Shown here piece by piece: positions 24,381 through 63,553 of a stretch of DNA of 64,000 nucleotides; position 1 is the first letter of the stretch; every line of letters begins with the position of its first letter. Origin of the DNA: Aphanomyces cochlioides (Eukaryota; Oomycota; Saprolegniomycetes; Saprolegniales; Verrucalvaceae). The notes below the pieces were generated by a model. It was not told where the DNA came from. It saw nothing but the letters and a program-made list of their open reading frames with translations, and made no database searches. The translations under genes and the position numbers were made by a program. The stretch covers positions 682,001 through 746,000 of the forward strand of contig JAHQRK010000023.1 of NCBI GenBank assembly GCA_019828595.1, in the 5' to 3' direction.

Positions 24381-25010
24381 ATGGTTTCTGCACTGCTTGT
24401 CGCCGCGCTAGCTGCCACCGCCGTGGCGCAATGCCAAGACTCGTTGAAGGTCTCGCTCCAGTACACGAGCGACATCTACTGTGTGGGCCAAGATCCGTGC
24501 TCGGGCGTCTACTTTCCAGGCAAGTTTGCATGCCCGTCCAAGGGAGCGGTCGCCATCAACACTGGAGTCACGCTGCAAGCGGATTCCTGCTGCTCGATCA
24601 TCAACGACTTGAACGCGGTCGGGTGCGTCATCCCAACGACCTCGACCAAGTGCATCTCCAAGAACACTGGACCAGTCGAGCCCGAGACGACGCAGTCGAA
24701 TCAAACCACGACTGCTACAACGACGGCAGCGCCAACAACTGCAACCACGATCTCGCCAGGAACCACAACTTCGCCAGGAACGACGGCAGCCCCGACAACG
24801 ACGCCAAGCAATACCACGACCAGTTTGTCCAACACAACGAGCGCACCCAACTCGACCGACGTCACACGCGAACCAAGCAACGACATCACGGAGCCTCCAT
24901 CGACCGCCAAGCCATCGACAGCTGCCCCAACGACGACCGCCAAGCCATCGTCGGCCGTACAAGCTGTCGCCTCTACTGCTTTCCTTGTCCTTGCACTCGC
25001 CATGATCTAA
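24381..25010 (+). CDS. Secreted, GPI-anchored Thr-rich (mucin-like) protein, 209 aa
   Basis: Single exon. The signal peptide is MVSALLVAALAATAVA, cut before QCQDS. Residues ~17-95 form a compact domain with eight cysteines (including a Cys-Cys pair in SCCSIIND), likely four disulfides. Residues ~96-185 are a Thr/Pro/Ser-rich stretch with TTT and TTSPGTT repeats, suited to dense O-glycosylation. The C-terminus is a hydrophobic tail (VASTAFLVLALAMI) preceded by small residues, typical of a GPI attachment signal. The protein should sit on the outer cell surface or wall. No enzymatic motif is visible. Such mucin-like surface proteins are common in oomycetes and may have adhesion or wall roles; that is inference. 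Confidence 0.8.
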   Translation: MVSALLVAALAATAVAQCQDSLKVSLQYTSDIYCVGQDPCSGVYFPGKFACPSKGAVAINTGVTLQADSCCSIINDLNAVGCVIPTTSTKCISKNTGPVEPETTQSNQTTTATTTAAPTTATTISPGTTTSPGTTAAPTTTPSNTTTSLSNTTSAPNSTDVTREPSNDITEPPSTAKPSTAAPTTTAKPSSAVQAVASTAFLVLALAMI

Positions 25011-39579: not shown

Positions 39580-40120
39580 AACGCGTGAATTGAGGATCAG
39601 CAGCCTACTGTCTGTGATGGTTGTGATCATGATGGAGATTGCTTTTGACGTTCTCTTCAACTGGATCGAGGAGCTGTCACATTGATGGATCGATGTGGTC
39701 TTTTTCGCTTGCTCGAGAGGAGAAAAGCATCCCCTTGCCAGTTTGTTATTGAAAAATTCGCTTGGTCTCATGAAGTTCATCCTCGCTTTCATCGTTTCTG
39801 CCATTGCGCTTGCTACCGACATCTCGAGCGATCTCCCCAAGGAACAACGTATGTTGACGGAGACTGACATGAAGGAGGCGAAGCATTTGCGTGAAGTCTC
39901 TGCGTCTGACAAGAAGAAGCAAGAGTGGGGATTGTGGGGACTCGGCCGTTGTGGTGGTTGCGGTCTCTGGGGCTTCGGCGGCTGTGGATGCGGCTTTGGT
40001 GGCTGGGGATGGTGGTAACTCCAAGACACGATTGACTAGAGCTAAGCACTCCTCTGTGCGTAATATCTAAGCTCTTGTCATCTGTAAAGACTCCTGTCCA
40101 TCTTGACACACTGACTCTAG
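39580..40120. repeat. Inverted duplicate of 45395-45945
   Basis: About 540 bp around the Gly/Trp-rich gene, including ~190 bp upstream and ~100 bp downstream, reappears in reverse orientation at 45395-45945. Downstream words such as CACGATTGACTAGAGCTAAG and upstream words such as AACGTCAAAAGCAATCTCCA are near-identical in both copies. Confidence 0.8.
39770..40018 (+). CDS. Small secreted Gly/Trp/Cys-rich protein, 82 aa (copy 1)
   Basis: Intact single-exon frame. Signal peptide MKFILAFIVSAIALA, then an acidic/basic helix (DLPKEQRMLTETDMKEAK, HLREVSASDKKK). The C-terminal ~30 residues are built from Gly, Trp, Leu, Phe and Cys (EWGLWGLGRCGGCGLWGFGG then CGCGFGGWGWW). Four cysteines are in CxxC and CxC spacing. 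The tail is very hydrophobic and aromatic, so it may insert in a wall, membrane or protein assembly. No known family. A near-identical copy lies at 45497-45745 and a broken one at 41470-41640. The spacer between helix and tail suggests a small precursor that could be processed at KKK. Confidence 0.75.
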   Translation: MKFILAFIVSAIALATDISSDLPKEQRMLTETDMKEAKHLREVSASDKKKQEWGLWGLGRCGGCGLWGFGGCGCGFGGWGWW

Positions 40121-40532
40121 CAGGAATCTCGAAAACACGGCATCGTGCTTGATTTCCAACGAAAAGACGACAGAGGGAGTCTTTCGAGGTGTAGCTGAGG
40201 CGACAGAACATGAATTGGAGCTCAAACTCAGTGTAATTCAACTTAGAAGCTTCTTAAGAGAAGGCTACAATGGTGCAGAGCAAGGACAGCGGCATTCGTC
40301 ACCCGTGTAGTAGCACACGCCACAACGATCGCGACCGCAACTTGGAGGGGGGCGCGTTGGGGATGTCGTTGGGGGAGCTCCACTCGATGGAGACACCGGC
40401 TTTGGTGACGATGGACGCACCGATGGAGAGACCGAAGGGACAGCCGTCGATGGAGGATCCGTGTCAGGACACACGCATTGGTTCGTCTCGGCTTCGAAGA
40501 TGCAGTTGCGACCGAAGAGTTTCTTGCAGTTG

Positions 40533-40540
40533 GTCGCATC
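40533..40540. repeat. Target site duplication, left copy (GTCGCATC)
   Basis: Eight bases directly before the hAT terminal repeat. Identical to 41235-41242, and present once at the corresponding place of the intact relative (GTCGCGTC near 45211). Confidence 0.85.
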
Positions 40541-41234
40541 CAGGGCTCCCGAATATCGGATATTTTACCGATATTTATTTCAAAATCCAAAAAATAAATA
40601 TATCCGATATTTATTGTATTGCTTAAAGTATTTCAATTGGTGATGCTTGACGTCAAAGTCGTATACTCTGTATGGTCGCTGCACTCCAGAGATCAAAGTT
40701 ATACCTCAGCATCATATTGTCCTCAAGCGTTTCAGTATCCATACTTGAGCGAAGCTTGGAGTACGTCAACTTGGCTTGTGAAAAAAAACGCTCACATTCA
40801 TTTGACGTCGGTGGCACAAAACGTGTGTCAATATATACTTGTCCGTAACTTTTGGCGTTTGTAGCATTTTTCGATGTACGATTTCTCTTCAGTTGTTGCT
40901 GTGAATTCCTTGTCGTCAAACCTAGCGACGGCGCTTCGCTCAGTCAAGGACAACGATTCATTGTCGCGCTGAATTTTTACAAGAGCATTCTCCAGTGAAG
41001 GATTATTCGTAATGTCGGCTGACTTTGACAAGTGAGACTTCATAGTCCAAGGCTTGGTCGAACATTCTACGTACAGCTGACAATGCAATGGTATTCTTCT
41101 GGAGTTCAAGCATGAGGAGAAAATGTTTTCCACCACACATCAGTATCGGGAAATATCGGTCTTTCAAACGATAAATAAATACGATCCAAATATTGGATTG
41201 TATTTGGTATTGGAATACTTATTCGGAAGCCCTG
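40541..41234 (-). mobile_element. hAT-family transposon remnant, 694 bp, with 8-bp TSD
   Basis: Ends are inverted repeats: CAGGGCTCCCGAATAT on the left and CAGGGCTTCCGAATAA read inward from the right. Flanking 8-bp duplications (GTCGCATC) are the hAT hallmark. Minus-strand coding remnants at 40653-41136 include FVPPTSNECERFFSQAKLTY then TLEDNMMLRYNFDLW, the C-terminal dimerisation region of hAT transposases, in two frames. The N-terminal BED finger and most of the catalytic core are missing, so the element is non-autonomous. Subterminal regions are rich in CGATATTT and CGGATATT words, possible transposase-binding sites. Confidence 0.88.
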
Positions 41235-41242
41235 GTCGCATC
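41235..41242. repeat. Target site duplication, right copy (GTCGCATC)
   Basis: Directly follows the right terminal repeat and is identical to 40533-40540. Confidence 0.85.
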
Positions 41243-41469
41243 CACGGCCGAACTGGTCGACGCCATGGCCAACACACACGCGACGATGAAGAGAGAGGAG
41301 GCTTTCATGGCACAGTTCAAATTGAAATATGACGATGCCGTTGATTTTTGCTTGTGCTTTTGTCATCTTTTCGTTGGAGATCAAGTAGGAAGTCTTCGTG
41401 TGGTGGAATCGACATTTGGGTCGCTTTTTCGTGGTTCCAGTGGATTTGTGCGGAATCTCCCATAGAGCT

Positions 41470-41640
41470 AGGAGATTATATGGACTGACGCCACCTGACC
41501 ACAGACGCCAAAACCTTAGAGACTGCAATCACTACAACGAACAAATCCTCACAATCCCCACTCTCGAGTCTCCGCCAAGGCTCGTTGTTCCATGGAGACG
41601 TCGCTGTAAATATCTCACTTTCAATACCTAGCATTTCGAA
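41470..41640 (-). pseudogene. Decayed third copy of the Gly/Trp-rich secreted gene
   Basis: In one minus-strand frame the order of the family is recognisable: a DIYSDVSMEQRAL piece matching DISSDLPKEQRML, then EWGL, stop, GFVRCSDCSL, stop, GFGVCG. Two Trp codons (TGG) have become stops (TGA). The helix between EQRAL and EWGL is deleted by about 25 codons relative to the intact copies. The signal peptide region is not recognisable. It sits upstream of the interrupted Pro/Cys gene, in the same arrangement as 44940-45745. Confidence 0.7.
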
Positions 41641-41939
41641 CAGCATGGTGGCCTTCGTGAAGGGCTGGAGCAAGCCGGCCCAAAACGTTGTCCTCAATCA
41701 ATTTTCAGCCTTCAACCTGCGGCGTCGACGTGCTTGTTGCCTGTTGCTGCACTCCTAGAGCTAACTCCCAGGACGTTGTTGGAACACTGGGTTATTCCCA
41801 TCAGATTGATCGTATGTCCAGGCCTGAGGGCGTCGTGTTTCTCTCTCTGTGTCGCCGGAGGGGGCACTATCGGACTTTTGGTCGTGGTCCCGAGCGGACT
41901 TTGTCGGAATTTCGAGTGAGTCTGGTCGGTACGTTGCAA

Positions 41940-42020
41940 ATTCTTATTGGTTAAAATAGCATTAATTTTAAGATCCTTGATTGGCTAGAATAATAAGAAC
42001 TGGTTATGATTGGCTAAAAT
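41940..42020. promoter_or_regulatory. CCAAT-box array upstream of SEC61 gamma
   Basis: Three inverted CCAAT motifs: ATTGGTTAAAAT at ~41946, TGATTGGCTAGAATAA at 41978 and TGATTGGCTAAAATAA at 42007. The last two are 29 bp apart, and the nearest is ~65 bp from the start codon. Confidence 0.6.
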
Positions 42021-42078
42021 AACAACACGCGGTCTGTGTGGTGCATTTCCAAACTTGCGCCAAAGCCGAAGTAACACC

Positions 42079-42354
42079 ATGTCGGACGTGAACGCCCTCG
42101 TGATTGAACCTTTGAAGCAATTCGCCAAGAACAGCGTCCATTTGGTCAAGAAATGCACCAAGCCTGACCGCAAAGGTAGATTCCCCATGCGATTTGCGTG
42201 AATTGGAAGTGCTTACGACGTTGTGGTTGTAGAATTTACCCGCATTGCTGGCGCGACGGGCATTGGTTTCCTCATGATGGGCTTTATTGGTTTCTTTGTC
42301 AAGTTGGTCCACATCCCCATCAACAACATCCTTGTCGGTGGTGGCAGCGCGTAA
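42079..42354 (+). CDS. SEC61G: Protein translocon subunit SEC61 gamma, 72 aa, two exons
   Basis: Exons 42079-42175 and 42233-42354 with a 57-bp intron (phase 1), 219 nt in total. The amphipathic N-terminus ([27 protein letters not shown]) is followed by [32 protein letters not shown], the single membrane helix of the SecE/SEC61 gamma family. Length and motif order match other eukaryotes (68-70 aa). It clamps the two halves of SEC61 alpha in the ER translocon. The gene is an ordinary housekeeping locus within the duplicated secreted-protein cluster. Confidence 0.96.
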
Positions 42355-42584
42355 ATTGACTTTGCGTCGATATTGCTGCTCTTCTGTGGACAATTTGATA
42401 GAGTATGAAGATAGTTTTATTAGTATGCGAGACTCTCAAAAACATGACCGTCATCCCTCAGATATTCCTCTCATCTTGCGCCGATTCTATCTCGCCGCCC
42501 TTCAGTGCTCGTCACTCGCGTGATGGATCCTCATGGATCTTGAACGATATCGGACGTTTCAAGCTACAGTTTTTGTCGAGCAGG
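42355..42584. other. Intergenic between SEC61 gamma and ankyrin gene
   Basis: Nothing supported except the likely promoter of the ankyrin gene. Confidence 0.4.
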
Positions 42585-44077
42585 ATGGCATCGACGGATG
42601 AAGTACCGCAGCGAGATATCCGAGCTATTTGGGAAAACCAGCGTGTCTTCCATGGACATACATCGACATTCAAGGAAATGAAGCTCAATTACACCCGCAA
42701 CGCATCGAAAGGCGTCCACGTAGCTCTTCGTCAACGTCAATCCTGAGTTAATTAGCTCCATGTAGAACTTTCTAGGCCTCGAAGACCAGCGGTACACACA
42801 CGTTGCTGTCCGTTCTGGATGATTCCACACTCTTCTTAGCTTTCTACGAGGGGAGAGCTCACATGGGATGCTGCCACGTATGTTGTCCACAATTCCTGAC
42901 AACATTTAGCTCATTGAGACCCAGGGAAGCAAACGCGAGATGGCCCGCTCGGCATTGTCGGGTACTGAACCATCAAATAGAACAATCGAGGTGATATCTC
43001 GCGCCAGAGCTATCGAATTCGGCGACATCGAGACCGTGGAGACCAAGCTCGATGCAGGAACATCGCCAAATCAAGCGAATTCAGTACGTCCATGCCTCCA
43101 GGACCACTCACTCATGCATGCCAAGGGGGGAGAAACGTTACTCCACGTTGCGGTGTTGCATCAGCAACTGCGGATCGTTCAACTCTTGATCGAGCGCAGC
43201 GCTGACGTCCGCGCAAGAACTCCCGTACGTCTTTCGGCGCTCGGTTTTGCCTATTCGATCCTTGCTAGTGGCGTCCAACGCCATTGTTCCAAGACCACAC
43301 ACTGCTGCAGTATGCCTACGACACGGCGTCCGACGGAGCTACGCCACTGCACTACGGTTCGATCTACTCCCATCGTCGATTCGGCCTTCGACTGAGCTCT
43401 GTGTTAGCTTGTGCACTCTCCAACATCCACTTGGTCAAAGTTCTTGTCGCTGCTGGCGCTGAGGTCGAGCTCTTCTCGACACGTGGATGGACTAACGAGG
43501 ACGATAGATCGACTGCGGTATCAACGAGGTACAATCCAAGGAGCTATCGGTGGTTTACATGACGCATGCTTGCTCCAGATGTGTGGCTCTCCGATTGTTT
43601 GGGCGCTGAGGTACAGTCGCTGGGGAGTTGATGTGGTCAGGACCAAGTAGAGCGCCCGAGAGACCTGTCGACGTGGTGAAACTGCTCTTGACGCTAGGAG
43701 CTTCCCCGCATTGCCTCGACATGGAATGCAATTCCACGATAGCGATGGCAGTGTTGTGGTGGCCAGAACCCGACGCATTCGACAAAGTGCAAGAGCTCGT
43801 TGCGCTCTTTGTCGCTGCTGGCGTCGACATTCAGCTGAAGAACACGTGTGGATGGACTGCATGGGACGTCGCCAAGTCCGAACGGGTGAAAACCTTTCTC
43901 CAAACCAAGTTTGGCGCTGCGTCCGGCCGCCACGAATCGATTGAACACTTTGGAAACCTCGAGCGCGAACGCAATGAAGGCCAGCCGTGGCTCAAGCCGC
44001 TCTACCGTCGTCCTGACGTCGGGAATCCTGCTGAGCGACCCACTGAAGTGTCAAATGAAGCTTCGATTCAAGGTTAA
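42585..44077 (+). CDS. Ankyrin-repeat protein, 388 aa, eight exons (5' exons tentative)
   Basis: Exons: 42585-42719, 42776-42877, 42910-43083, 43126-43224, 43269-43356, 43408-43517, 43579-43610 and 43651-44077, 1167 nt in total. From residue ~85 ankyrin repeats follow: RAIEFGDIETVETKLDAG, GETLLHVAVLHQQLRIVQLL, DGATPLHYACALSNIHLVKV with LVAAGAEVEL, then VVKLLLTLGASPHCLD and ELVALFVAAGVDIQLKN with GWTAWDVAK. The C-terminus is charged and unique (EGQPWLKPLYRRPDVG). The first two exons and the 32-bp second intron rest only on frame and splice-site fit. Without them the gene could begin at the ATG at 42940. Ankyrin repeats bind other proteins; no partner domain shows the pathway. Confidence 0.75.
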
Positions 44078-44104
44078 AGTTTCCCCTTCGATCTCTCTCA
44101 AAGA

Positions 44105-44570
44105 CTACAACGGAGAGGAGCATGGGCAATGACATTCGTCGCCCGTGAAGTAGCAAATGCCACAGCGATTACGGCCGCAAGTCGGAAAGGTTGGGCTTGG
44201 CGGGGGAACTGGTGCGACTGTGGGGGCGGCTGTCGGAGCAGCCGAAGTCGTGGGGGATTTCGTCGGCGACAGTTGAGCTCGGTCGTTACGATGGCGGTAA
44301 GCTCGAAGACGGCGCAATTGTCGGGCGCGTGGTCGACGTCACAGGTGGTGCAGCAGTGCTACTTGGAATTGGCTCATCGCTCGGTGCCGTGTTGGAGCAG
44401 ATACATTGTCGCGTCACGGGCTCAAAGACACAGCCAGGGCCAAGCTGCACGCACGTCGTCGCGTTGAATTGAAACGCAGCGATCGCATTGGCATGCAAGG
44501 CGATGGAGACAATGAGAAGGGCAATGACTTGCATTGGTGAGAGAAAATTGTAAAATGACAAGGCCTTCAT
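44105..44570 (-). CDS. Secreted Pro/Cys-rich protein, diverged copy; frame change or unusual intron
   Basis: Starts at 44570 (MKALSFYNFLSP...) or at the internal ATG 44534, both giving a signal peptide ending before FQFNATTC. The N-terminal domain has TTCVQLGPGCVFEPVTRQC. A Pro/Thr/Ser linker then runs into a stop (TAA near 44298). The C-terminal module (CGRNRCGICYFTGDECHCPC) continues in another frame to 44105. Splicing from GTAGCACTGC (about 44367) to the AG at ~44283 would restore the frame without loss of cysteines, with an ~85-bp intron. The alternative is a frameshift. A CT microsatellite (44610-44630) lies just upstream. Confidence 0.6.
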
Positions 44571-44939
44571 GAGCAGAAGAGAACGCTCTTCCAGGAGCGA
44601 TAGAGCTTCGCTCTCTCTCTCTCTCTCTGTCGTCTTTTCGTGGATGGAGACGCAATGTGCTTGCATCGCAGTCAGGCGATGAATCTCCAAGGTCGCCTTT
44701 TTGTTGTCGTCGCACTGGAAGTGAAAAGAATTGACGTCGTGCTTTCGGTGATCTTCCGTCCGTCTCGAGGAGATTTCCAGTGAGCTGATGGATGCGTCGG
44801 CTTGATTTCAAGGTAAGGAATCTAATCAACAGCAGATTGCAATGACGAGGCTCGTCAGTGAAGACTTAGCAGTCTCGAGTAAATTGAATGAATGGTGCTT
44901 GCATGACGTAGATGTATTCATGACCAAAGCACTACTGTA

Positions 44940-45284
44940 CTACAATGACGCAGAGCAAGGACAGCGGCATTCGTCGCCCGTGTAGTAGCATAAGCCACAA
45001 CGGTCGCGACCACAGCTTGGAGGGGGACGAGTGGGGGATGTCGTGGGGGGAGCTCCATTCGATGGAGTCACCGGCTTTGGTGACGATAGACGCACCGATG
45101 GAGAGACCGAAGGGACAGCCGTCGATGGAGGATCCGTGTCAGGACACACGCATTGGTTCGTCTCGGCTTCGAAGATGCAGTTGCGACCGAAGAGTTTCTT
45201 GCAGTTGGTCGCGTCCACGGCGGCCAAAGTGATCGACGCTATAGCCAACACACACGCGAGGGCGAAGAGAGAGGAGGCTTTCAT
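44940..45284 (-). CDS. Secreted Pro/Cys-rich protein, 114 aa (intact copy)
   Basis: Intact single exon from the ATG at 45284. Signal peptide MKASSLFALACVLAIAS, then NCKKLFGRNCIFEAETNQCV as a three-to-four-Cys N-terminal module. A linker rich in Pro, Ser and Thr follows, and the C-terminal module CGRDRCGLCYYTGDECRCPC is followed by only three residues. The C-terminal eight cysteines in Cx5CxxC...CxCxC spacing look like a compact knotted or metal-binding head. The two Cys-rich ends joined by a likely O-glycosylated stalk resemble small apoplastic proteins of oomycetes. No known family was recognised. Relatives lie at 40265-41308, 44105-44570 and 45941-46489. Confidence 0.75.
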   Translation of the reverse strand: MKASSLFALACVLAIASITLAAVDATNCKKLFGRNCIFEAETNQCVCPDTDPPSTAVPSVSPSVRLSSPKPVTPSNGAPPTTSPTRPPPSCGRDRCGLCYYTGDECRCPCSASL

Positions 45285-45394
45285 GGCAGGTTGCAAATTC
45301 AAATATGACAAGGAGGCTGATCGTCGCTTGTGCTTTTGTCATCTTTTCGTTGGAGAACAAGTTGGAAGTGAGTCGAAACTTGTGTCGCTTTTTC

Positions 45395-45945
45395 GCGAAA
45401 CGTACGAAATCAGTGCGAAGTTCGACATGATTGATGACAAGAGCTTGGATGTTATGCACTGAGGAGTGCTTAGCTCTAGTCAATCGTGTCATGGAGTTAC
45501 CACCATCCCCAGCCACCAAAGCCGCATCCACAGCCGCCGAAGCCCCAGAGACCGCAACCACCACAACGGCCGAGTCCCCACAATCCCCACTCTTGCTTCT
45601 TCTTGTCAGACGCAGAGACTTCACGCAAATGCTTCGCCTCCTTCATGTCAGTCTCCGTCAACATACGTTGTTCCTTGGGGAGATTGCTGGAGATGTCGGT
45701 AACAAGGGCGATGGCAGGAACGATGAAAGCGAGGATGAACTTCATGAGACCAAGCGAAATGAACAATGAGGATGAGGAGCTGAAAAGAATGCTTTCATTC
45801 CTCTGGCTAGCGAGGAAGACCGCATTGACCCATCAATATGATAGCTCGTGGTTTCAGTTGAGGAGAACGTCAAGAGCAATCTCCATCATGACAGGAACCA
45901 TCACAGACAGGAGGCTGCTCATTCAACATTTCACGTGGTCTCACG
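45395..45945. repeat. Inverted duplicate of 39580-40120
   Basis: Contains the second intact Gly/Trp-rich gene with its flanks, in reverse orientation to the first copy. The two coding sequences differ at only a few residues. Confidence 0.8.
45497..45745 (-). CDS. Small secreted Gly/Trp/Cys-rich protein, 82 aa (copy 2)
   Basis: Intact frame from the ATG at 45745. The sequence is the same as copy 1 except for a few changes in the signal peptide and the first mature residues (for example VPAIALV in place of VSAIALA, and SSNLPKEQ in place of SSDLPKEQ). The whole Gly/Trp/Cys tail is unchanged. The near-identity points to recent duplication or gene conversion, while keeping the tail suggests function. 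It lies directly upstream of the intact Pro/Cys gene on the same strand with ~210 bp between, so the two may be co-regulated. Confidence 0.75.
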   Translation of the reverse strand: MKFILAFIVPAIALVTDISSNLPKEQRMLTETDMKEAKHLREVSASDKKKQEWGLWGLGRCGGCGLWGFGGCGCGFGGWGWW

Positions 45946-46489
45946 AGTCTTGGCGGTGACTGACGTGGAGGAAACCAAGCATACCCATATGTCCAGAACT
46001 TGGCACCGGTTGGCACCAAATGGCGCCAAGGAGTAGACACAACACGACTACTCCTTGTCGTCTCAGTAATTCCTGGAAGTACATCACCAGTGAAATACCA
46101 AATGCCGCAGCGGTCACGCCCACAGGTTGGAGGAGGATTCGTCGGCAGGTTATCGGGTAGCTCGGAGGAGGACTTGGAGCCATCGTTGGAAAAGTTGGTG
46201 GAGGTGTGGACGAGATGGGAGGCAGTGTCGGTGGTGATGTCGGAGCTGCAGTTGTGCTCGTCGTTGTAGTGGGAGTTGAGATGGTCCTCGGAGTTGGTGG
46301 GACAGTCGACGGAGGAAACGTCGTGGTGTCGGGTGGCAACGGCGTATTAGTGAGAGGAGGATTATTGCAGATGCACTGCCGAGTCGTTGGGTCGTACGTG
46401 CAGTCAAGCTTTCGGCAAGTCGTCGGGTTGATTTCAACGGGCTTTGCCATCGTCGCAGGACTCACAAGTACAAGCAGGATTCCCTTCAT
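45941..46489 (-). pseudogene. Secreted Pro/Cys-rich gene copy with frameshift and lost C-terminal module
   Basis: Start at 46489 (MKGILLVLVSPATMA) with NPTTCRKLDCTYDPTTRQC as the N-terminal Cys module and a long Thr/Pro stalk. The open frame then runs to 45941 without the family module. In another frame the beginning of the module is visible (PPPTCGRDRCGIWYFTGD), with Cys to Trp in the middle, followed by unrelated residues instead of ECHCPC. No splice pair I tried joins the frames. It is therefore probably a broken copy; a shortened functional protein is possible. Confidence 0.6.
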
Positions 46490-46712
46490 GCTGTTGGCAA
46501 GTTGAAAAGTGAGCATGCTGCTGAGGTTTCAACACCCTGAAGGCACGCCAAGTCGCATTTCCGTGGGAGGAGTCTGTCGGATCGTCAACCAAATATTTCC
46601 AGTCGTGCGCAAATTCGTCCAAGTGATCGAGATTCCTGGTCGTCCGTTGAGAGAATCCATGCCATGCTCACCAGATAACGCACTCCAGGCGATGTCGTTG
46701 CCCAGCTAACGA

Positions 46713-47903: not shown

Positions 47904-49238
47904 TTAGTCGTAGTGCTTGTCGGGGATGAGCTCTTCCTCCAAGTCAACAATTTCATGGTGGTCGTTCCAGCCTTCCTTGCGGAATTCGCCTTCCATCTTG
48001 GCCATCACGACGGCAGCCAAGCAGTTGCCAAAGACATTGGTGAACGTGCGAGCCATGTCCATGAACCAGTCAGCACCCAAAAGAAGGCCTACAGTCCACG
48101 TGGGGATGTCGAATTGGTCCAAAGTCGAGGCGATGACAATGATACTGGCCGAGCGGACACCAGCGACACCCTTGGACGACACGATGAGCATCAACACCAT
48201 CGTGATTTGTTCGCCGACAGACTTGTGGATGCCAGCGGCTTGGGCGCAGAACATGGAGCCGAGAGTGAGGTACAACGTCGAGCCATCCAAGTTGAACGAA
48301 TAGCCGAAAGGCACGACGAAGGCAGTGATGTGCTTGGAGACACCGAAGGCATCCAACGCTTCAAAGACCTTGGGCAATGCGGCTTCAGACGTGGCGGTGG
48401 TGTACGCAATGATCAAAGGTTCGCGCATGCCGCGGATGAATTCAATGGGGCTCATGCGGAGATAGAAGAAGATAGGACCAAAGACGACGATGATGAAAAC
48501 GAGCAACGTGCCGTACAACGTGGCAACCAGCTTGCCCAAGCTGCTGAGCACATGGAGACCACCGTTGCTGGCAATGGCGTTGGCGACACTGAAGCAGACA
48601 CCGATGGGAGCCGTCCAGATCACAATGTCGACAAACTTGAACATGACCCACATGACAGCCTCAGCGACGTCCATGATTTGCTTCTTGGCGCGATCATTCG
48701 CAAGAGCAGTACTCGTACCGAAAAGCACGGCGGCAACCAACACTTGGAGCAATTCCGACGAGCCAGAGCCGCCCATCATTTCACCCCATGTCTTGGGGGC
48801 CAAGTGGTTGATCCAGATCGCGTAGGTAAACTTGTCAGCAGTCGTGACATTGGGGTTCTTCACCGTGGCGAAGCCTGATCCACCAGGCTTGATCCAGTTG
48901 ACAGAGAGCAAGCCAAGGATGAGCGCAATCGTGGTCACAATTTCAAAGTAGATGAACGACTTGAGCGCGACACGGCCCAACGACTTGAGATCGTTGTTGC
49001 CGGCAATACCGACAATGAGCGTCGAGAAGACCAACGGGAAGACGATGAATTGCACAGGGCGCAAGAACAAGTTGGCGGTAGGGGCAGCTTTCTTGCTAAA
49101 GTCTGGCGCTTCCGAGCCGAGCAAGATGCCCAAACCAGTACCGACGATGATCCAAAACGTCAACGACGTCAAGATGCGGCGGGTGAGCGTCTGCGGCTCT
49201 TTCGGCGTAACGTCTTCTTGAGCGTGAAAGGCGACCAT
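47904..49238 (-). CDS. Dicarboxylate/amino acid:cation symporter, 444 aa (copy A)
   Basis: Intronless. Member of the DAACS/SLC1 family (Pfam SDF; bacterial GltP, archaeal GltPh). Visible landmarks in order: N-terminal scaffold helices (SLTFWIIVGTGLGILLG, PVQFIVFPLVFSTLI), the WGEMMGGSGSSELLQV loop and hairpin 1 TTATSEAALPKVFEA. Then TM7 FNLDGSTLYLTLG (the NMDGT motif), hairpin 2 SSKGVAGVRSASII, and TM8 DWFMDMARTFTNVFGN. By GltPh numbering Asp390, Asp394, Arg397, Thr398 and Asn401 are conserved, which suggests an acidic amino acid or dicarboxylate substrate. Asp405, a sodium-site ligand, is Asn, and Met311 is Leu. The protein should be a plasma-membrane trimer. Over 90% like copy C. An upstream block shared with the other copies lies at 49620-49700. 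Confidence 0.93.
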   Translation of the reverse strand: MVAFHAQEDVTPKEPQTLTRRILTSLTFWIIVGTGLGILLGSEAPDFSKKAAPTANLFLRPVQFIVFPLVFSTLIVGIAGNNDLKSLGRVALKSFIYFEIVTTIALILGLLSVNWIKPGGSGFATVKNPNVTTADKFTYAIWINHLAPKTWGEMMGGSGSSELLQVLVAAVLFGTSTALANDRAKKQIMDVAEAVMWVMFKFVDIVIWTAPIGVCFSVANAIASNGGLHVLSSLGKLVATLYGTLLVFIIVVFGPIFFYLRMSPIEFIRGMREPLIIAYTTATSEAALPKVFEALDAFGVSKHITAFVVPFGYSFNLDGSTLYLTLGSMFCAQAAGIHKSVGEQITMVLMLIVSSKGVAGVRSASIIVIASTLDQFDIPTWTVGLLLGADWFMDMARTFTNVFGNCLAAVVMAKMEGEFRKEGWNDHHEIVDLEEELIPDKHYD

Positions 49239-52340: not shown

Positions 52341-53714
52341 ATGGCTAGCCCACGAGCGCAACCAGTCGACCCCCGAGTCTCACTAGAGCATGGAGCCGCC
52401 TACGAACGCCTTGACGGCTTGAAGCCATCGCTGGCGAAACGCATTCTCAAGTCGCTGACGTTTTGGATCATCGTTGGCACAGCCATTGGGATCATCCTTG
52501 GTTCACAAGCACCATCGTTCAGCATCAAAGCAGCGCCGACAGCCAATTTGTTTTTACGTCCCGTGCAATTCGTCGTCTTTCCACTGGTCATGTCAACGCT
52601 TGTGATTGGGATCGCGGGCCATTCCAACTTGAAAGCGTTGGGGTGGCTCGCCCTCAAATCCGTCTTGTACTTTGAAGTCGTGACGACGATCGCTCTCGCC
52701 CTTGGTCTCATTGCCGTAAACGTCTCCCAGCCAGGCGACGCTGGTTTCAACAAAGCGAAAGATCCCAATCTAAACCCATCGTCGACATTCACGTATGCCA
52801 TTTGGATCAACCACTTGACGCCAAAAACGTGGGGCGAGATGATGGGCGGCTCTGGCTCGTCCTAACTGCTCTAAGTCCTCGTGGCTTCAATCGTCCTTGG
52901 CGTCAGCACCGCGCTCGCCGACGACAAGTCTAAGAAACGCATCCTCGACTTTGCCGACGCCGTCATGCAAGTTATGTTCAAGTTTGTCGAGATTGTGATT
53001 TGGGCTGCCCCTGTTGGCGTCTGCTTCTCGATTGCAAATGCGATTGCCAAGAATGGCGGGCTCAGTGTAATCTCAAGCTTGGGTCAGCTTGTCGCGACGC
53101 TCTACGTGACGCTCATTGTCTTTGTCGTTGTCGTCTTTGGCACGATCTTTTGGCTCATCAAGCTCAACCCGATTGAATTCGTCCGTGGCATGCAAGAACC
53201 GCTCTTGATCGCATTCACGACCGCGACGTCTGAAGCAGCGCTGCCCAAAGTCTTCGAGGCATTGGATACGTTTGGTGTCTCCCCTCACATCACCGCCTTT
53301 GTCGTCCCCTTTGGCTATTCTTTCAACTTGGACGGCGGTGCGCTCTACATGACCATGGCAGCGGTGTTTTGTGCTCAAGCTGCTGGAGTGCACAAGTCGG
53401 TGGGCGAGCAGATTGTGATGCTCCTGCTTGTCATGGTCTCGTCCAAAGGGATTGCCGGCGTGCGCTCTGGGAATCTTGTCGTGATTGCCGCCGCGCTCGA
53501 GCAATTTGACATTCCAGCGTGGGCAATGGGGCTTATCGTTGGCGTCGACTGGTTCCTCGACATGGGACGCACGTTTGTCAACGTCTTTGGCAATTGCTTG
53601 GCTGCCGTCGTCATGGCAAAACTCGAGGGCAAATTCCGCAAGCATGGCAAGTGGGCTACACACCACGCTGTGGTCGTCGATGAAGAGCATCCTGACAAGG
53701 AAATCGCCGCGTAA
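52341..53714 (+). pseudogene. Dicarboxylate/amino acid:cation symporter copy B with two in-frame stops
   Basis: Opposite strand to the other copies and the most diverged of the four. The frame covers the complete family length (457 codons) with every landmark: NLFLRPVQFVVFPLV, WGEMMGGSGSS, TTATSEAALPKVFEALDTFG, FNLDGGALYMT, SSKGIAGVRSGN and DWFLDMGRTFVNVFGN. Right after GGSGSS the codons for Glu and Gln (ELLQ in the other copies) are both TAA, at 52863-52865 and 52872-52874. Everything else is open and conserved, so inactivation is recent, or the region is a sequencing or assembly error. TAA is the normal stop of SEC61 gamma and others here, so codon reassignment is excluded. Confidence 0.85.
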
Positions 53715-53964: not shown

Positions 53965-55317
53965 TTAGTCGTGGGGCTTGTAGGGGGCAGAAGCCTCTTC
54001 AAAGCCTTCACGTGGCGTCTCAATGTCGACGATTTGAGCATCGTTCCAGCCTTCCTTGCGGAATTCACCCTCCATCTTGGCCACCACGACGGCAGCCAAG
54101 CAGTTGCCAAAGACATTGGTGAACGTACGAGCCATGTCCATGAACCAGTCAGCACCCAAAAGAAGACCAACCGTCCATGCTGGGATATCAAATTGGTCCA
54201 AAGTCGAGGCGATGACAATGATACTGGCCGAGCGGACACCAGCGACACCCTTGGACGACACGATGAGCATCAACACCATCGTGATTTGTTCACCAACGGA
54301 CTTGTGGACGCCGGCAGCTTGAGCGCAGAACATGGCGCCGAGAGTGAGGTACAACGTCGAGCCATCCAAGTTGAACGAATAGCCGAAAGGCACGACGAAA
54401 GCAGTGATGTGCTTGGAGACACCGAAGGCATCCAACGCTTCAAAGACCTTGGGCAATGCGGCTTCAGACGTGGCGGTGGTGTACGCAATGATCAAAGGTT
54501 CGCGCATGCCGCGGATGAATTCAAGCGGGTTCATGCGGAGGTACAAGAAGATAGGACCAAAGACGACGATGATGAAGACAACCAGCGTGCCGTACAACGT
54601 GGCGACCAGCTTGCCCAAGCTGCTGAGCACATGGAGACCACCGTTGCTGGCAATGGCGTTGGCGACACTGAAGCAGACACCGATGGGAGCCGTCCAGATC
54701 ACAATGTCGACAAACTTGAACATGACCCACATGACAGCATCCGCAATGTCGAGGATTTGCTTCTTGGCCTTGTCATTTGCCATGGCCGTACTCGTACCAA
54801 AAAGAACGGCAGCAATCAACACTTGAAGCAATTCCGACGAGCCAGAGCCGCCCATCATTTCGCCCCACGTCTTGGGAGCCAAGTGGTTGATCCACAGCGC
54901 GTAGGTAAACTTGTCAGCAGTCGTGACATTGGGGCTCTTGACGGTGGCGAAGCCCGATCCGCCGGGCTTGACCCAGTTGACAGAGAGTAAGCCAAGGATA
55001 AGAGCGATCGTGGTCACAACTTCAAAGTAGATGAACGACTTGAGCGCGACACGGCCCAACGACTTGAGATCGTTGTTGCCAGCGATACCAACGACGAGGG
55101 TTGAGAAGACCAACGGGAAGACAATGAATTGCACAGGGCGCAAGAACAAGTTGGCCGTCGGCGCGGCTTTCTTGCTAAAGTCTGGCGCTTCCGAGCCGAG
55201 CAAGATGCCCAACGCCGTACCAAAAATGATCCAAAACGTCAATGATGTTAAGATGCGGCGGGTGAGCGTCTGCGGCTCTTTCGGTGGAGCGTCTTGCTGA
55301 AGCTGAAGGTGAACCAT
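53965..55317 (-). CDS. Dicarboxylate/amino acid:cation symporter, 450 aa (copy C)
   Basis: Intronless, very close relative of copy A through the membrane domain. Differences are concentrated at the extreme N-terminus (MVHLQLQQDAPPKEPQ versus MVAFHAQEDVTPKEPQ) and in the C-terminal tail (DIETPREGFEEASAPYKPHD). All landmarks and the Asp405-to-Asn change are the same (DWFMDMARTFTNVFGN). It lies tail-to-tail with copy B, 250 bp apart. It probably arose with copy A by tandem duplication. The divergent tails may give different trafficking or regulation. Confidence 0.93.
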   Translation of the reverse strand: MVHLQLQQDAPPKEPQTLTRRILTSLTFWIIFGTALGILLGSEAPDFSKKAAPTANLFLRPVQFIVFPLVFSTLVVGIAGNNDLKSLGRVALKSFIYFEVVTTIALILGLLSVNWVKPGGSGFATVKSPNVTTADKFTYALWINHLAPKTWGEMMGGSGSSELLQVLIAAVLFGTSTAMANDKAKKQILDIADAVMWVMFKFVDIVIWTAPIGVCFSVANAIASNGGLHVLSSLGKLVATLYGTLVVFIIVVFGPIFLYLRMNPLEFIRGMREPLIIAYTTATSEAALPKVFEALDAFGVSKHITAFVVPFGYSFNLDGSTLYLTLGAMFCAQAAGVHKSVGEQITMVLMLIVSSKGVAGVRSASIIVIASTLDQFDIPAWTVGLLLGADWFMDMARTFTNVFGNCLAAVVVAKMEGEFRKEGWNDAQIVDIETPREGFEEASAPYKPHD

Positions 55318-58865: not shown

Positions 58866-60227
58866 ATGAAAGATACAACGAGTGAAATGACCGACTGGTA
58901 CGACCGTATCTGGGAGGATGAGCGTGCAAACGACGACATCTTCGAGCTTTTGACCTTCACCGATGCTATGGGTGATGACAGTGAGCAAGAGTATAAGAGC
59001 AAATGGAAAGGATCAAGACAGGGCCGCTCAGAGAATGTGAATCGTGATTTCAAAGCCGGTGCCGAACGTATACTCAAGGACTATTTCTCGTCCTCTGCCA
59101 TTTACAACGATCACATATTTTGGCGGCGTTTCCGTATGCGCCGGTCACTATTCTTGCGTATTGTAAGCAAGATTGCATCATACGACAAATGGTTCGAGCA
59201 AAAATTTGACGCATTAAACAAGCCCGGACCGTCAACTCTGCAAAAGATCGTCGCTCCAATGCGAATCCTTGCTTATGGATGCGCTTATGATGCCGTGGAT
59301 GAATATATTCGAATCAGTGAGTCCATGGCAAATGACTGCCTTGATCATTTCTGTGCTGCAGTCCATGGTGTTTATGGTGAAACGTATCTCCGTCAACCTG
59401 ATGTCCATGACCTTGAACGTATTCTTCACGAAAATGTCAAGAGGGGCATGCCAGGCATGGTTGGATCTATTGACTGCTACAACTGGGTTTGGGACAATTG
59501 TCCCGTGGCTTATCATGGATCCTACAGTGATGTAAAAGGCACATCGATTGTTTTAGAAGCAGCAGTGTCATACGATCTCTGGATATGGCATGCCTTTTTC
59601 GGCATGCCAGGAGCACTCAATGATGTGAATGTCCTTGATCGCTCGCCTCTGCTGCATTCAATGGTTAATGGTTCTTGTCATGAAGTTGAATACATTGTAA
59701 ATGGAACGAAGTATACAATGCCATACTGGCTAGCTGACGGTATTTATCCAAATTGGCCAGTGTTTGCAAAGTCGATCCCTGATCCACATGGCCCAGCAAG
59801 AAAATTGTACAGTCAGCTACATGAGAGTATGCGAAAAGATGTAGAGAGAGCCTTTGGTGTATTGCAGAAACGTTTTACCATCCTAAAAAATCCAGCACGT
59901 TCATGGACAGTGACTCGATTAAAAGCTATCATGACAACTTGCCTCATTCTACACAATTTGATTGTGGAGGATGAGAGAGAACTGCATCTTGATCACGAAT
60001 ATGATCCGTTTTCAAGCGTACAGCGTTGTATTCGAAAAAAGCGTCGAAAAAATCGAACAACTGAAGCCCCCATAATAATTCGTCAGACAAACACCGCCGA
60101 CATGCCTCAGCAATCAATGGCTTCGATTTTCAAACGTCTGTGTGTTATTCATGATCGTTCAGCATTTATCAAGTTGCAGAATGACTTGGTAAGCCACATT
60201 TGGAAGGACCATGGAGCTCACGATTAG
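58866..60227 (+). CDS. PIF/Harbinger DDE transposase, 453 aa
   Basis: Uninterrupted, from the first in-frame ATG at 58866. The N-terminal ~100 residues contain DYFSSSAIYNDHIFWRRFRM with RRSLFLRIVSKI and a helix-turn-helix-like region ending VAPMRILAYGCAYDAVDEYI. The catalytic triad is visible: Asp in GMVGSIDCYNWVW, Asp in MPGALNDVNVLDRSPL, Glu in DVERAFGVLQKRF, followed by IMTTCLILHNLIVEDE. This matches the DDE_Tnp_4/plant transposon (Harbinger) family. The protein cuts and pastes the element and needs the partner encoded at 60294-61058 for nuclear import and end binding. There is no stop or frameshift. Confidence 0.92.
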   Translation: MKDTTSEMTDWYDRIWEDERANDDIFELLTFTDAMGDDSEQEYKSKWKGSRQGRSENVNRDFKAGAERILKDYFSSSAIYNDHIFWRRFRMRRSLFLRIVSKIASYDKWFEQKFDALNKPGPSTLQKIVAPMRILAYGCAYDAVDEYIRISESMANDCLDHFCAAVHGVYGETYLRQPDVHDLERILHENVKRGMPGMVGSIDCYNWVWDNCPVAYHGSYSDVKGTSIVLEAAVSYDLWIWHAFFGMPGALNDVNVLDRSPLLHSMVNGSCHEVEYIVNGTKYTMPYWLADGIYPNWPVFAKSIPDPHGPARKLYSQLHESMRKDVERAFGVLQKRFTILKNPARSWTVTRLKAIMTTCLILHNLIVEDERELHLDHEYDPFSSVQRCIRKKRRKNRTTEAPIIIRQTNTADMPQQSMASIFKRLCVIHDRSAFIKLQNDLVSHIWKDHGAHD

Positions 60228-60293: not shown

Positions 60294-61058
60294 TCAAACG
60301 ACTTTCTCTTCATCATCCATATTTTGTTGTTCAATGCGCTTCTTCAGTGATTCAAGTGCCATTTCGCGTTTGAGCATGAAATATTCGCGTGCTATGTCGT
60401 CGTCGTCCCTGCCCATCAATGCCATTTTATTCGTTTCTTCAAGCAGCGCATTTCTTTTATTCTGAGCTTTGATCATGTTGGAGCGAAAGGTAGCCACGTC
60501 CGTTCCATGATCGCGCTCTTCGATTTCTCTTTTCACTCCTCTTGGCAGCTTTGCGGACGGAACTACAGTATCCTCCATATTAGGATCTGTTGATCGTCGC
60601 TTTCGGTCGGAGTTTTCTTTTGTAATTGAAGGCATTGAGCCACCATCGACAAGAATATCCTCAAACTTGGGAACTGACTTTCGCAAATTGTTCCACACAT
60701 CCAACAATTCAAACTCCGTTTCTTTTTCGTGCCGGAACATTTCGAGCGCTAGTTTCACATAATCTTCGTCTTGCCAGCCAGAACGGACAAGACTCGTGGC
60801 CTTAGAGTAGCATCCAACGAACTTATTCACGTCTGCTTGCATAGTTTTCCAACTATTTTCGATTGCAACGGCTGTACGTGGTACGGGGATTGACGAGCTG
60901 TCTTCAGTGCTTTGGAGGGCCACAAACGTGTCATAGACGCGCTTGTAGTATGTTGCCTTCTTCTGGCCCGTCCCAGAGATAGGATCATGACTCACATGTA
61001 CGATGGACTTTGCAATGAGCATTGAATCCTCCGCAGACCAAGCTTTTCCTCGGCCCAT
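60294..61058 (-). CDS. Harbinger accessory DNA-binding (SANT/Myb-like) protein, 254 aa
   Basis: Uninterrupted frame in the same element, converging on the transposase (66 bp between stops). The N-terminal ~100 residues are trihelical, Trp-rich: GKAWSAEDSMLIAKSIVHVS, ENSWKTMQADVNKFVGCY, ATSLVRSGWQDEDYVKLAL. They resemble the Myb/SANT-like domain of Harbinger ORF1 proteins. A basic linker (DRKRRSTDP, AKLPRGVKREIEE) and a C-terminal helix (YFMLKREMALESLKKRI) follow. In characterised relatives this protein carries the transposase into the nucleus and binds subterminal repeats. Confidence 0.85.
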   Translation of the reverse strand: MGRGKAWSAEDSMLIAKSIVHVSHDPISGTGQKKATYYKRVYDTFVALQSTEDSSSIPVPRTAVAIENSWKTMQADVNKFVGCYSKATSLVRSGWQDEDYVKLALEMFRHEKETEFELLDVWNNLRKSVPKFEDILVDGGSMPSITKENSDRKRRSTDPNMEDTVVPSAKLPRGVKREIEERDHGTDVATFRSNMIKAQNKRNALLEETNKMALMGRDDDDIAREYFMLKREMALESLKKRIEQQNMDDEEKVV

Positions 61059-62188: not shown

Positions 62189-63553
62189 TTAGTCCAAGTG
62201 CTTGTACGGGTGTTCTTCCGCCAAACCAGCGTTGGGCGACGCGATCGACAGTTCATCGATTTCGTGGTGGGCGTTCCAGCCTTCCTTGCGGAATTCACCT
62301 TCCGACTTGGCCATGGCGATAGCAGCCAAGCAGTTGCCGAAGACGTTAGCGCAAGCACGAGCCATGTCAATGAACCAGTCGCCACCCAAGATGAGACCGA
62401 CCGTCCACGCTGGGATATCAAATTGGTCGACCGTCGCGGCGATGACAATGATAGCAGCCGAGCGGACACCAGCGACACCCTTGGACGACACGATAAGTAG
62501 CAAGCACATGGTCACTTGTTCGCCGAGCGTCTTGTGGATGCCAGCAGCTTGGGCGCAGAACATGGAGGCCAACGTAAGATACAAAGTCGAGCCATCCAAG
62601 TTGAACGAATAGCCGAACGGTACGACAAAGGCAGTGATGTGCTTGGAGACACCGAAAGCATCCAACGCTTCGAAAACCTTGGGCAATGCGGCTTCAGACG
62701 TAGCCGTGGTGTAGGCAATGAGCAAGGGTTCGCGCATGCCACGGACAAATTCAATCGGACTGAGCTTGATGTACCAGAACACTGGACCAAAGACACAAAT
62801 CATAAAGATGAAGAGTGTCACGTAGTAGGTGAGGATCAACTTGCCCAAGCTTGCAAGCACGTGAAGACCACCGTTGTTGGCGATAGCGCTGGCAATACTG
62901 AAGCAAACACCGATGGGAGCCGTCCAGATCACAATGTCGACAAACTTGAACATGATCCACATGACAGCCTCGGCAATGTCGAGGATTTGCTTCTTGGCCT
63001 TGTCGTTTGCCATGGCCGTACTCGTACCAAAGAGGACAGCAGCAACCAACACTTGAAGCAATTCCGAGGAACCGGAGCCGCCCATCATTTCACCCCACGT
63101 CTTGGGAGCCAAGTGGTTGATCCAGATCGCATAGGTAAACTTGTCGGCAGTCGTGATAGTCGTGTTGGAGGTTTTACCGAAATCGGATGCGCCGGGCTTG
63201 ACAATGTTGACGGAGATCAAGCCAAGGATGAGCGCCAGGGTGGTCACGACTTCAAAGTAGATGAACGCTCGGAGAGCAACACGGCCCAAAGATTTGAGGT
63301 CGTTTTGACCAGCGATACCATGAATGAGCGTCGAGAAGACCAACGGGAAGACGATGAATTGCACGGGACGCAAGAACAAGTTGGCCGTCGGAGCGGCTTT
63401 CTTGCTAAAGTCTGGTGCTTCCGAGCCGAGCAAGATGCCCAAACCAGTTCCAACAATGAGCCAGAACGTCAAGGAGGTGAAAATCTTGCGGGCGACCGAT
63501 TTCGGTGGCTTGAGCTCGACCAGCTCGTTTTCTTGGGGATGGAAATGGACCAT
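62189..63553 (-). CDS. Dicarboxylate/amino acid:cation symporter, 454 aa (copy D)
   Basis: Intronless, same strand as A and C, and more diverged from them than they are from each other. Differences include KPGASDFGKTSNTTITTADK in the TM3-4 loop, a changed TM5 region (LGKLILTYYVTLFIFMICVF) and a different tail. Landmarks are kept: TTATSEAALPKVFEALDAFG, FNLDGSTLYLTLASM, SSKGVAGVRSAAII, and DWFIDMARACANVFGN in TM8. In this copy the RT pair is RA, so GltPh Thr398 is Ala here, besides Asp405 to Asn. Arg397 is kept. This suggests altered substrate or cation handling relative to copies A and C. Confidence 0.93.
   Translation of the reverse strand: MVHFHPQENELVELKPPKSVARKIFTSLTFWLIVGTGLGILLGSEAPDFSKKAAPTANLFLRPVQFIVFPLVFSTLIHGIAGQNDLKSLGRVALRAFIYFEVVTTLALILGLISVNIVKPGASDFGKTSNTTITTADKFTYAIWINHLAPKTWGEMMGGSGSSELLQVLVAAVLFGTSTAMANDKAKKQILDIAEAVMWIMFKFVDIVIWTAPIGVCFSIASAIANNGGLHVLASLGKLILTYYVTLFIFMICVFGPVFWYIKLSPIEFVRGMREPLLIAYTTATSEAALPKVFEALDAFGVSKHITAFVVPFGYSFNLDGSTLYLTLASMFCAQAAGIHKTLGEQVTMCLLLIVSSKGVAGVRSAAIIVIAATVDQFDIPAWTVGLILGGDWFIDMARACANVFGNCLAAIAMAKSEGEFRKEGWNAHHEIDELSIASPNAGLAEEHPYKHLD

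What the first reader, a model, noticed from the sequence alone, without database searches (positions are those of the whole stretch)
39580..46490. Expanding cluster of two unknown secreted-protein families
Within 7 kb there are three copies of a Gly/Trp/Cys-tailed 82-aa secreted protein and four of a Pro-stalk protein ending in CGRDRCGxCYxTGDExxCPC. Two Gly/Trp copies are intact and near-identical in opposite orientation; other copies are interrupted, frameshifted or carry stops. The Gly/Trp and Pro/Cys genes are paired in the same order at 40265-41640 and 44940-45745, so they duplicated together. Neither family matches anything I know. Paired, fast-duplicating secreted genes often act at the cell surface or in host or wall interaction.
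Basis: partly seen in the sequence, partly recalled or inferred. Interest (0 to 1): 0.8.

Follow-up and report, generated by a model that had tools for sequence, protein, structure and literature searches.

The report
Glycine-tryptophan-tailed secreted gene cluster
A root pathogen related to water moulds carries small, probably secreted proteins with a glycine- and tryptophan-rich tail, usually encoded head-to-head with a positively charged sister gene; they resemble known but poorly understood secreted proteins, and what they do is untested.

Summary
The window (Aphanomyces cochlioides) has two intact 82-aa Gly/Trp (GW) genes in opposite orientation, one GW relic with stops, and four Pro/Cys (PC) copies: one intact, one split by a 694-bp hAT-like insert, two frame-broken. 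A GW+PC block was duplicated here.

The interpretation needs changing. A genome search finds 14 open GW genes. For 12 of 12 outside the window the partner is not PC but a head-to-head cationic Trp/Arg/Gly (RW) sister gene, 171 or 163 nt away (one RW broken). GW-PC pairing is local; PC has its own cluster on another contig. A 29-nt promoter block occurs 8 times in 76 Mb, each time upstream of a GW gene (6 of 6 on C5, 2 of 2 here, 0 of 6 on C56). GW and RW share signal peptide, leader with an 'LR' motif, and tail starting mostly EWG(L/R)WG. Relatives exist in A. euteiches; a link to Phytophthora and Achlya proteins is weaker. GW looks to be under purifying selection, strictest in the tail: it expands in copy number rather than diversifying fast.

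It fits the published 'G-rich SSP' class of Aphanomyces. Best guess for mechanism: co-expressed secreted peptide precursors, antimicrobial-like. Rivals: host-directed effector, wall component. No expression data.

The parts
39770..40018 (+). GW gene 1, intact, 82 aa
   Evidence: ORF; one of 14 open full-length copies in the genome
45497..45745 (-). GW gene 2, intact, 82 aa, inverted copy of GW gene 1
   Evidence: ORF; 96% identity; inverted arms 39748-40082 / 45433-45767
41498..41614 (-). GW relic with in-frame stops (described only)
   Evidence: tblastn 42%, E 3e-8 in a search of the window; 1 TGA, 1 TAA
39635..39663 (+). conserved 29-nt promoter block upstream of GW gene 1
   Evidence: 8 places in 76.2 Mb at up to 3 mismatches, all exact, all upstream of GW genes; mean 0.00 in window shuffles
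45855..45883 (-). conserved 29-nt promoter block upstream of GW gene 2
44940..45284 (-). PC gene, intact, 114 aa: signal peptide (by eye), N-terminal Cys part, Pro/Ser/Thr stalk, C-terminal CGRDRCGLCYYTGDECRCPC
   Evidence: ORF; own-genome search
40265..40540 (-). PC copy, C-terminal part, split by the insert (described only)
   Evidence: 94% to the intact copy over 93 aa
41243..41308 (-). [quoted passage not shown]
   Evidence: 67% over 30 aa, the last few of which lie in the insert
40541..41234 (.). hAT-like element (694 bp), terminal inverted repeats CAGGGCT(C/T)CCGAATA
   Evidence: target-site duplication GTCGCATC at 40533-40540 and 41235-41242; 23 matches in the genome including itself, searched as 40552-41243
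44105..44534 (-). PC copy with N and C parts in different frames (described only)
   Evidence: tblastn pieces 44534-44277 and 44275-44108, stop near the break
46083..46498 (-). PC copy with N and C parts in different frames, C-module degraded (described only)
   Evidence: tblastn pieces 46498-46211 and 46172-46083
44940..45600 (.). duplicated PC+GW block, second copy of 40265-41571
   Evidence: collinear repeats D1, D3, D4

Best explanation
The GW genes encode small secreted precursors: signal peptide, leader of about 35 residues with a conserved HLR(E/D/Q) motif, then a probably disordered Gly/Trp/Cys tail that begins EWGLWG. Their usual arrangement is a head-to-head pair with a cationic RW gene of the same layout, probably co-expressed from a shared promoter of 163-171 nt. 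In the window the RW half is absent, the promoter block is kept, and a neighbouring PC gene was caught in a local duplication. Shown: the family in this genome, its layout, the pairing, the promoter block, the decay of three of four PC copies, low dN/dS. Inferred: secretion, co-expression, and action outside the cell. I think the most likely action is that of antimicrobial-type or surface-binding Gly/Trp-rich peptides used against other microbes or at the root surface: the tails bind membranes or surfaces, and in the RW partner an acidic leader (-5) balances a cationic tail (+5 to +9) until release. Whether the leader is cleaved is unknown.
For: 14 open GW genes; RW genes head-to-head with 6 of 6 GW genes on C56 and 6 of 6 on C5 (one C5 RW carries a stop), gaps 163 and 171 nt, C5 intergenic stretch identical in 6 of 6 copies. 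Promoter block at 8 of 8 C5 and window GW genes and at no other place in 76.2 Mb at up to 3 mismatches, 0 for the reversed control, although C5 and C16 coding sequences differ at dS above 1. Leader and tail start shared by GW and RW. Tail stricter than leader (dN 0.12-0.19 against 0.31-0.48 between loci). Six tails measured: 43-52% Gly, 12-34% Trp; three RW tails +5 to +9. Nematode caenacin and insect NLP proteins appear among the weak hits; from passages of PMC8181894 and PMC2453101: caenacins are Gly/aromatic-rich with a signal peptide, CNC-4 increases bacterial membrane permeability, and the related nlp-29 peptides form a recently duplicated cluster.
Against: No expression, secretion or activity data. 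GW tails are nearly neutral (0 to +1), unlike typical cationic antimicrobial peptides. No dibasic cleavage site is shared by GW and RW (by eye). The caenacin likeness is compositional (E 0.33), and insect cuticle-type proteins score better (2.6e-3). AlphaFold gave no usable model (pLDDT 52). The promoter block is absent at the 6 C56 genes, and the pattern was drawn from the genes it finds.
Confidence: 0.4

Rival explanations
1. GW (and RW) are host-directed effectors of the Aphanomyces SSP class: the leader, with its HLR motif, is a sorting or processing signal and the tail acts in the plant apoplast or inside plant cells, as AeSSP1256 does in the nucleus.
For: Passages seen: G-rich SSPs characterise the non-core secretome of A. 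euteiches, and AeSSP1256, a core SSP of the G-rich class, promotes infection (PMC8780586; PMC5907361; PMC11339880). LR in the leader in 17 of 19 Aphanomyces-type and 21 of 22 Phytophthora/Achlya-type proteins, shuffle expectation 1.6 and 1.1. Two Phytophthora hits carry the UniProt name 'RxLR effector protein'. RW tails hold RG-rich repeats.
Against: No strict RxLR at the conserved site; the authors found no RxLR effectors in A. euteiches or A. astaci. The LR sits at different distances from the tail in the two sets. Low dN/dS and tail conservation rather than diversification. A similar-looking protein in Achlya hypogyna, though at E 0.11 only.
Confidence: 0.3
2. They are structural: glycine-rich, Trp/Cys cross-linkable proteins of the hyphal, cyst or oospore wall or of extracellular mucilage.
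For: Gly 43-52% and regularly spaced aromatic residues; weak Pfam GRP match in 4 of 14 members, best E 0.0032; 'Glycine-rich protein' labels and insect cuticle-type hits; tail constraint and many identical copies, as for dosage.
Against: The GRP match is weak and probably compositional. Tails are short (30-57 aa in the six measured). A paired cationic/neutral design is not what I would expect of wall proteins (judgement).
Confidence: 0.2
3. This particular locus is mostly a decaying remnant of the family, shaped by duplication, gene conversion and a transposon, and the window copies contribute little; PC here is dying out.
For: One of three GW and three of four PC copies are broken; hAT-like insert; no RW gene found in the window; the A. 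euteiches PC model departs from the Cys module after the stalk. Identity between the GW copies is 100% in the tail but 50-90% upstream, as conversion would give.
Against: Both GW frames are intact, dN/dS 0.26, and both keep the 29-nt promoter block exactly.
Confidence: 0.1

Closest known systems
Aphanomyces small secreted proteins (AeSSPs), G-rich class (PMC5907361, PMC8780586; passages seen)
   Same: Short, signal peptide (by eye), no domain, Gly-rich, clustered duplicates, same genus; the named close relatives are A. euteiches proteins.
   Different: AeSSP1256 carries an NLS and enters the plant nucleus; the GW tail is Trp/Cys-rich with no obvious NLS (by eye). Head-to-head pairing with a sister gene and the promoter block did not appear in the passages I saw.
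Phytophthora/Achlya Gly/Trp-rich small secreted proteins (unnamed; some 'Glycine-rich protein' or 'RxLR effector protein')
   Same: MK signal peptide, xLR in leader, KKE(F/W)WG or QEWG tail start, Gly/Trp tail.
   Different: LR lies next to the signal peptide (about residue 24-26) rather than at about 37-42; homology of the leader middle is only weakly supported, and only the best hits exceed insect Gly-rich proteins.
Nematode caenacins / NLP antimicrobial peptides
   Same: Gly/aromatic-rich short secreted peptides in expanding gene families.
   Different: Different phylum; GGYG repeats; similarity to GW is compositional (E 0.33).
Trypsin-like (S1) proteases of the C5 locus with Pro/Thr stalk and Cys module
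   Same: Stalk plus a C-terminal stretch CDTCSYCYYPDGDEC resembling CGLCYYTGDEC of PC (3 of 2000 shuffles reach the score for the window PC; 3, 12, 88 and 99 of 2000 for two C6 PC proteins), also beside GW genes.
   Different: Carry a trypsin domain (PF00089 tested on one copy) and a longer 39-aa module; PC has no recognised enzyme domain.

Membership tests
Aphanomyces SSP, G-rich class | Secreted, under 300 aa | tested here: inconclusive
   82 aa; MK + hydrophobic stretch + ALA by eye; no signal-peptide program was available
Aphanomyces SSP, G-rich class | No known functional domain | tested here: met
   GW: only sub-threshold or weak Pfam hits, no NCBIfam
Aphanomyces SSP, G-rich class | Glycine enrichment | tested here: met
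   Tails 43-52% Gly; the paper's proteome-quartile cut-off was not computed
Aphanomyces SSP, G-rich class | Infection-induced expression | not testable with these tools
   No reads held
RxLR effector | RxLR motif downstream of the signal peptide | tested here: not met
   KHLR(E/D/Q), GHLRQE, THLRQE, NLRQE or none at the conserved site; no strict RxLR there
RxLR effector | WY-type helical effector fold | tested here: inconclusive
   AlphaFold pLDDT 52, tail without structure
Caenacin/NLP antimicrobial peptides | GGYG repeats | tested here: not met
   No GGYG in the GW and RW sequences (by eye)
Caenacin/NLP antimicrobial peptides | Antimicrobial activity | not testable with these tools
   Needs an assay
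hAT element (the insert) | 8-bp target-site duplication and terminal inverted repeats (recalled criteria) | tested here: met
   GTCGCATC on both sides; 15-bp ends alike at 14 of 15
hAT element (the insert) | hAT transposase in a full-length relative | not tested
   No transposase search of related copies was run

The most novel reading that the evidence does not exclude
GW and RW are the two halves of a head-to-head, two-peptide antimicrobial system of oomycetes: one cationic Trp/Arg peptide and one neutral Trp/Cys peptide, made as leader-held precursors from one shared promoter with its own cis-element, and used against competing root microbes; the Phytophthora and Achlya proteins are its relatives, so the system would predate plant parasitism in Aphanomyces.
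Probability: 0.12. Interest if true: 0.8.

Novelty: new variant of a known kind. Interest (0 to 1): 0.5.

Why it matters
Small secreted proteins without domains make up a large part of the A. euteiches secretome and are proposed to shape host preference (PMC8780586, passages), yet few have a defined mode of action. A recurring head-to-head GW/RW unit, most copies with their own promoter block, gives a concrete, testable module, a cis-element to follow in expression data, and a possible link to similar proteins in Phytophthora. The single-protein searches listed no A. cochlioides entry for the window's GW or PC proteins, so its gene set may lack them; for GW an entry could be hidden, since the database is clustered at 90% identity.

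Tried and rejected
PDB hits of GW to designed 'SAKe' kelch proteins rejected as Gly-composition matches. Pfam 'Microp_apicomplexa_5' (E 0.048, bits below its cut-off) and GRP (best E 0.0032) not accepted. C5 'PC' hits looked like conserved GW-PC pairing but are proteases with a stalk and Cys module: one piece tested as trypsin, the other two by eye. PC as two copies of one six-Cys module: Cys spacing fits in 5 of 5 N-parts and 4 of 5 C-parts of C6 proteins, but alignment scores are mostly no better than shuffles (19 to 1015 of 2000 in six proteins), so not claimed; the window PC's N-part does not fit the spacing. Leader homology with Phytophthora: with signal peptide and junction held fixed, 22 real leaders rank 2 to 162 of 200 own shuffles; suggestive at best. 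LR count: of 33 proteins fetched, 27 entered the counts, chosen by eye; of the six left out, P0008 and P0012 have LR and P0016, P0028, P0032 and P0048 do not. The first count mis-split the two window rows; corrected. Structure of PC: pLDDT 56 without alignment; no fold search run. Positive selection: not seen, but silent sites are saturated between loci and several tail dS values could not be computed. C56 tandem units: 3 of the other 5 are identical to unit 1 over 1049 nt without gaps; two score 0.80 and 0.77, probably from a one-base register shift and the array edge, which I did not resolve; the GW proteins are identical in 6 of 6, RW in 6 of 6.
Full report
WHAT IS THERE. The window lies at C16:682001-746000 of a 76.2-Mb, 94-contig genome. 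It is Aphanomyces cochlioides: a database protein named AC1031_018353 [Aphanomyces cochlioides] sits on a contig of 3,361,283 bases, exactly the length of contig C56 of this genome, and all but its last part equals an ORF read from C56.

THE BROKEN COPIES. The PC copy at 40265-41308 is split by a 694-bp element with 15-bp terminal inverted repeats (14 of 15 alike) and an 8-bp target-site duplication, GTCGCATC, the hallmarks (recalled) of hAT elements. It is dispersed: 23 matches in the genome including itself. Two further PC copies have N and C parts in different frames with little sequence between, so an intron is unlikely though not excluded. The GW relic has two in-frame stops. These copies were described, not repaired.

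THE USUAL PARTNER OF GW. A search of the whole genome with the GW protein gave 16 matches: 14 full-length open copies (2 on C16, 6 on C5, 6 on C56), one weak match on C12 and the window relic; the tool calls such counts lower bounds. C56 has a tandem array with period about 1049 nt, in which each GW gene stands head-to-head with a second small ORF whose tail is cationic Trp/Arg/Gly (RW). A search with RW gave 21 matches: 15 RW places (6 on C56 in the array, 2 more on C56, 6 on C5, and a tail-only piece on C7; two of the 15 carry a stop) and the 6 C56 GW genes. Thus 12 of 12 GW genes on C5 and C56 have an RW gene head-to-head, ATG to ATG 171 nt (6 of 6 on C5) or 163 nt (6 of 6 on C56); one of the 12 RW partners, on C5, carries a stop. 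In the window, tblastn with RW finds only the two GW genes at E below 0.001, so no partner was found there. On C5 the pairs lie in inverted repeats, among them one of 1644 nt at 100% and one of 3938 nt at 99.7%.

PROMOTER BLOCK. The C5 intergenic stretch is identical in 6 of 6 copies. Aligned with the upstream regions of the window genes it shows a common block. As pattern GAGATKGNNNTYGACGTTCTNNTCAACTG with up to 3 mismatches it occurs 8 times in the genome, each time exactly and upstream of a GW gene (6 on C5, 2 in the window); the reversed control gives 0, and window shuffles 0. The pattern was drawn from these sequences, so the hits themselves are expected; what is informative is that no other place has it and that it survives between C5 and C16, whose coding sequences differ at dS above 1. 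It is absent from the 6 C56 pairs.

PROTEIN LAYOUT. Alignment A1 of 14 GW and RW proteins shows signal peptide (by eye), leader, and tail start, mostly EWG(L/R)WG; E52, W53, W56 and G57 are among the invariant columns. LR is present in the leader in 17 of 19 Aphanomyces-type proteins (missing in P0005 and the C56 array RW) and 21 of 22 Phytophthora/Achlya-type ones (missing in Achlya P0044), against 1.6 and 1.1 expected in shuffled leaders. The rows were chosen by eye from the profile hits and are related, so this shows conservation, not independent events. The two RW leaders measured are -5 and the three RW tails +5 to +9; the one GW leader measured is -1 and the three GW tails 0 to +1.

SELECTION. 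The two window GW genes differ at 6 nt, 3 of them changing residues, all in the leader; dN 0.016, dS 0.060, ratio 0.26, which rests on few changes. Identity is 100% from 39850 to 39999, 90% at 39750-39849 and 50% at 39700-39749, then 80-88% at 39600-39699, so gene conversion may have homogenised the tail. Between loci the ratio over the whole gene is 0.08 to 0.29 where computable, and dN is lower in tail (0.12-0.19) than leader (0.31-0.48); dS is saturated or not computable in several comparisons.

PC. The intact window PC has no Pfam match, no PDB match at E up to 10, and only a sub-threshold NCBIfam hit (E 0.51). It has one database relative, A. euteiches LEN26_008933, whose model leaves the Cys module after the stalk. 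In the genome it has a second cluster on C6, 804-812 kb: 8 places, 3 with a stop, without GW or RW hits there. The three C5 hits are protease ORFs. Their 39-aa Cys module is found at 17 places, 16 on C5 and 13 of these between 535 and 576 kb, among the GW/RW pairs; only one of the 17 was tested for a trypsin domain, and several lie in short frames. The PC C-module resembles that module (window PC: 3 of 2000 shuffles; two C6 PC proteins: 3, 12, 88 and 99 of 2000). PC may be a stalk-and-module relative of these enzymes; this is a lead only.

RELATIVES. Single-sequence search: 5 proteins, two from A. euteiches (E 5e-43, 3e-40), two unnamed from ENA (8e-35) and JGI (2e-26), and one at E 3. Profile search: 83 proteins at E up to 10, of 7982 candidates scored, including more A. 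euteiches GW and RW proteins, one A. cochlioides RW protein, Phytophthora (best 1e-6) and Achlya hypogyna (0.11). Composition alone reaches 2.6e-3: an insect cuticular protein and a Drosophila protein score that, insect NLP-32 0.03 and C. elegans CaeNaCin 0.33. So the best Phytophthora hits stand about three orders of magnitude above that level, while others and Achlya do not, and the leader test is weak. One oomycete-wide family is plausible, not shown.

LITERATURE. Passages of PMC5907361 and PMC8780586: A. euteiches SSPs, about 5% in clusters of 3-9 genes, G-rich class in the non-core secretome, AeSSP1256 a core G-rich member; no RxLR found. Passages of PMC10084794: modular proteases with PAN/Apple, ML, CBM1 and CAP domains. 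Passages of PMC11653986: A. cochlioides infection RNA-seq with under 1% pathogen reads. Passages of PMC11339880, PMC4316629, PMC8181894 and PMC2453101. Ten searches listed no paper whose title or abstract start describes a GW/RW head-to-head family in oomycetes; one search listed 20 of 55 papers and 10 of 13, and the library lacks most subscription papers. The A. cochlioides genome paper was seen only as a reference.

VERDICT. A real, well-observed cluster. GW fits a published class (G-rich SSPs) with an arrangement I did not find described, and PC is a small unknown Cys/Pro family whose link to GW is local. AlphaFold gave no usable model for either. Mechanism remains inference: I favour secreted peptide precursors with antimicrobial or surface activity (0.4) over host-directed effector (0.3), wall component (0.2) and mere remnant (0.1).

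Noticed in passing
window 47904-49238, 52965-53714, 53965-55317, 62189-63553: Family of sodium:dicarboxylate symporters (PF00375) in tandem: three ORFs covering the whole domain on the - strand and one partial on the + strand.
   Followed up: partly
window 58866-60227 and 60294-61058: Transposase-like ORF (PF04827 Plant_tran, PF13359 DDE_Tnp_4) beside a second ORF without Pfam match, laid out like a Harbinger-type element with its partner gene (recalled).
   Followed up: partly
window 24381-25010: Secreted-looking ORF with Thr/Pro stalk and hydrophobic C-terminus, GPI-anchor-like by eye; no Pfam match at 0.001.
   Followed up: no
window 42940-44077: Ankyrin-like frames (by eye) between the GW and PC copies; the 43631-44074 piece has no Pfam match at 0.001.
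   Followed up: partly
C5:535-576 kb (L033-L037): Protease-type ORFs with Pro/Thr stalk and an unannotated 39-aa Cys/Tyr module, 13 places, interleaved with GW/RW pairs in near-perfect inverted repeats.
   Followed up: partly
L071 (C56 around 1,179,000): An RW gene between two other secreted-looking ORFs with RG- or RGG-rich tails.
   Followed up: no
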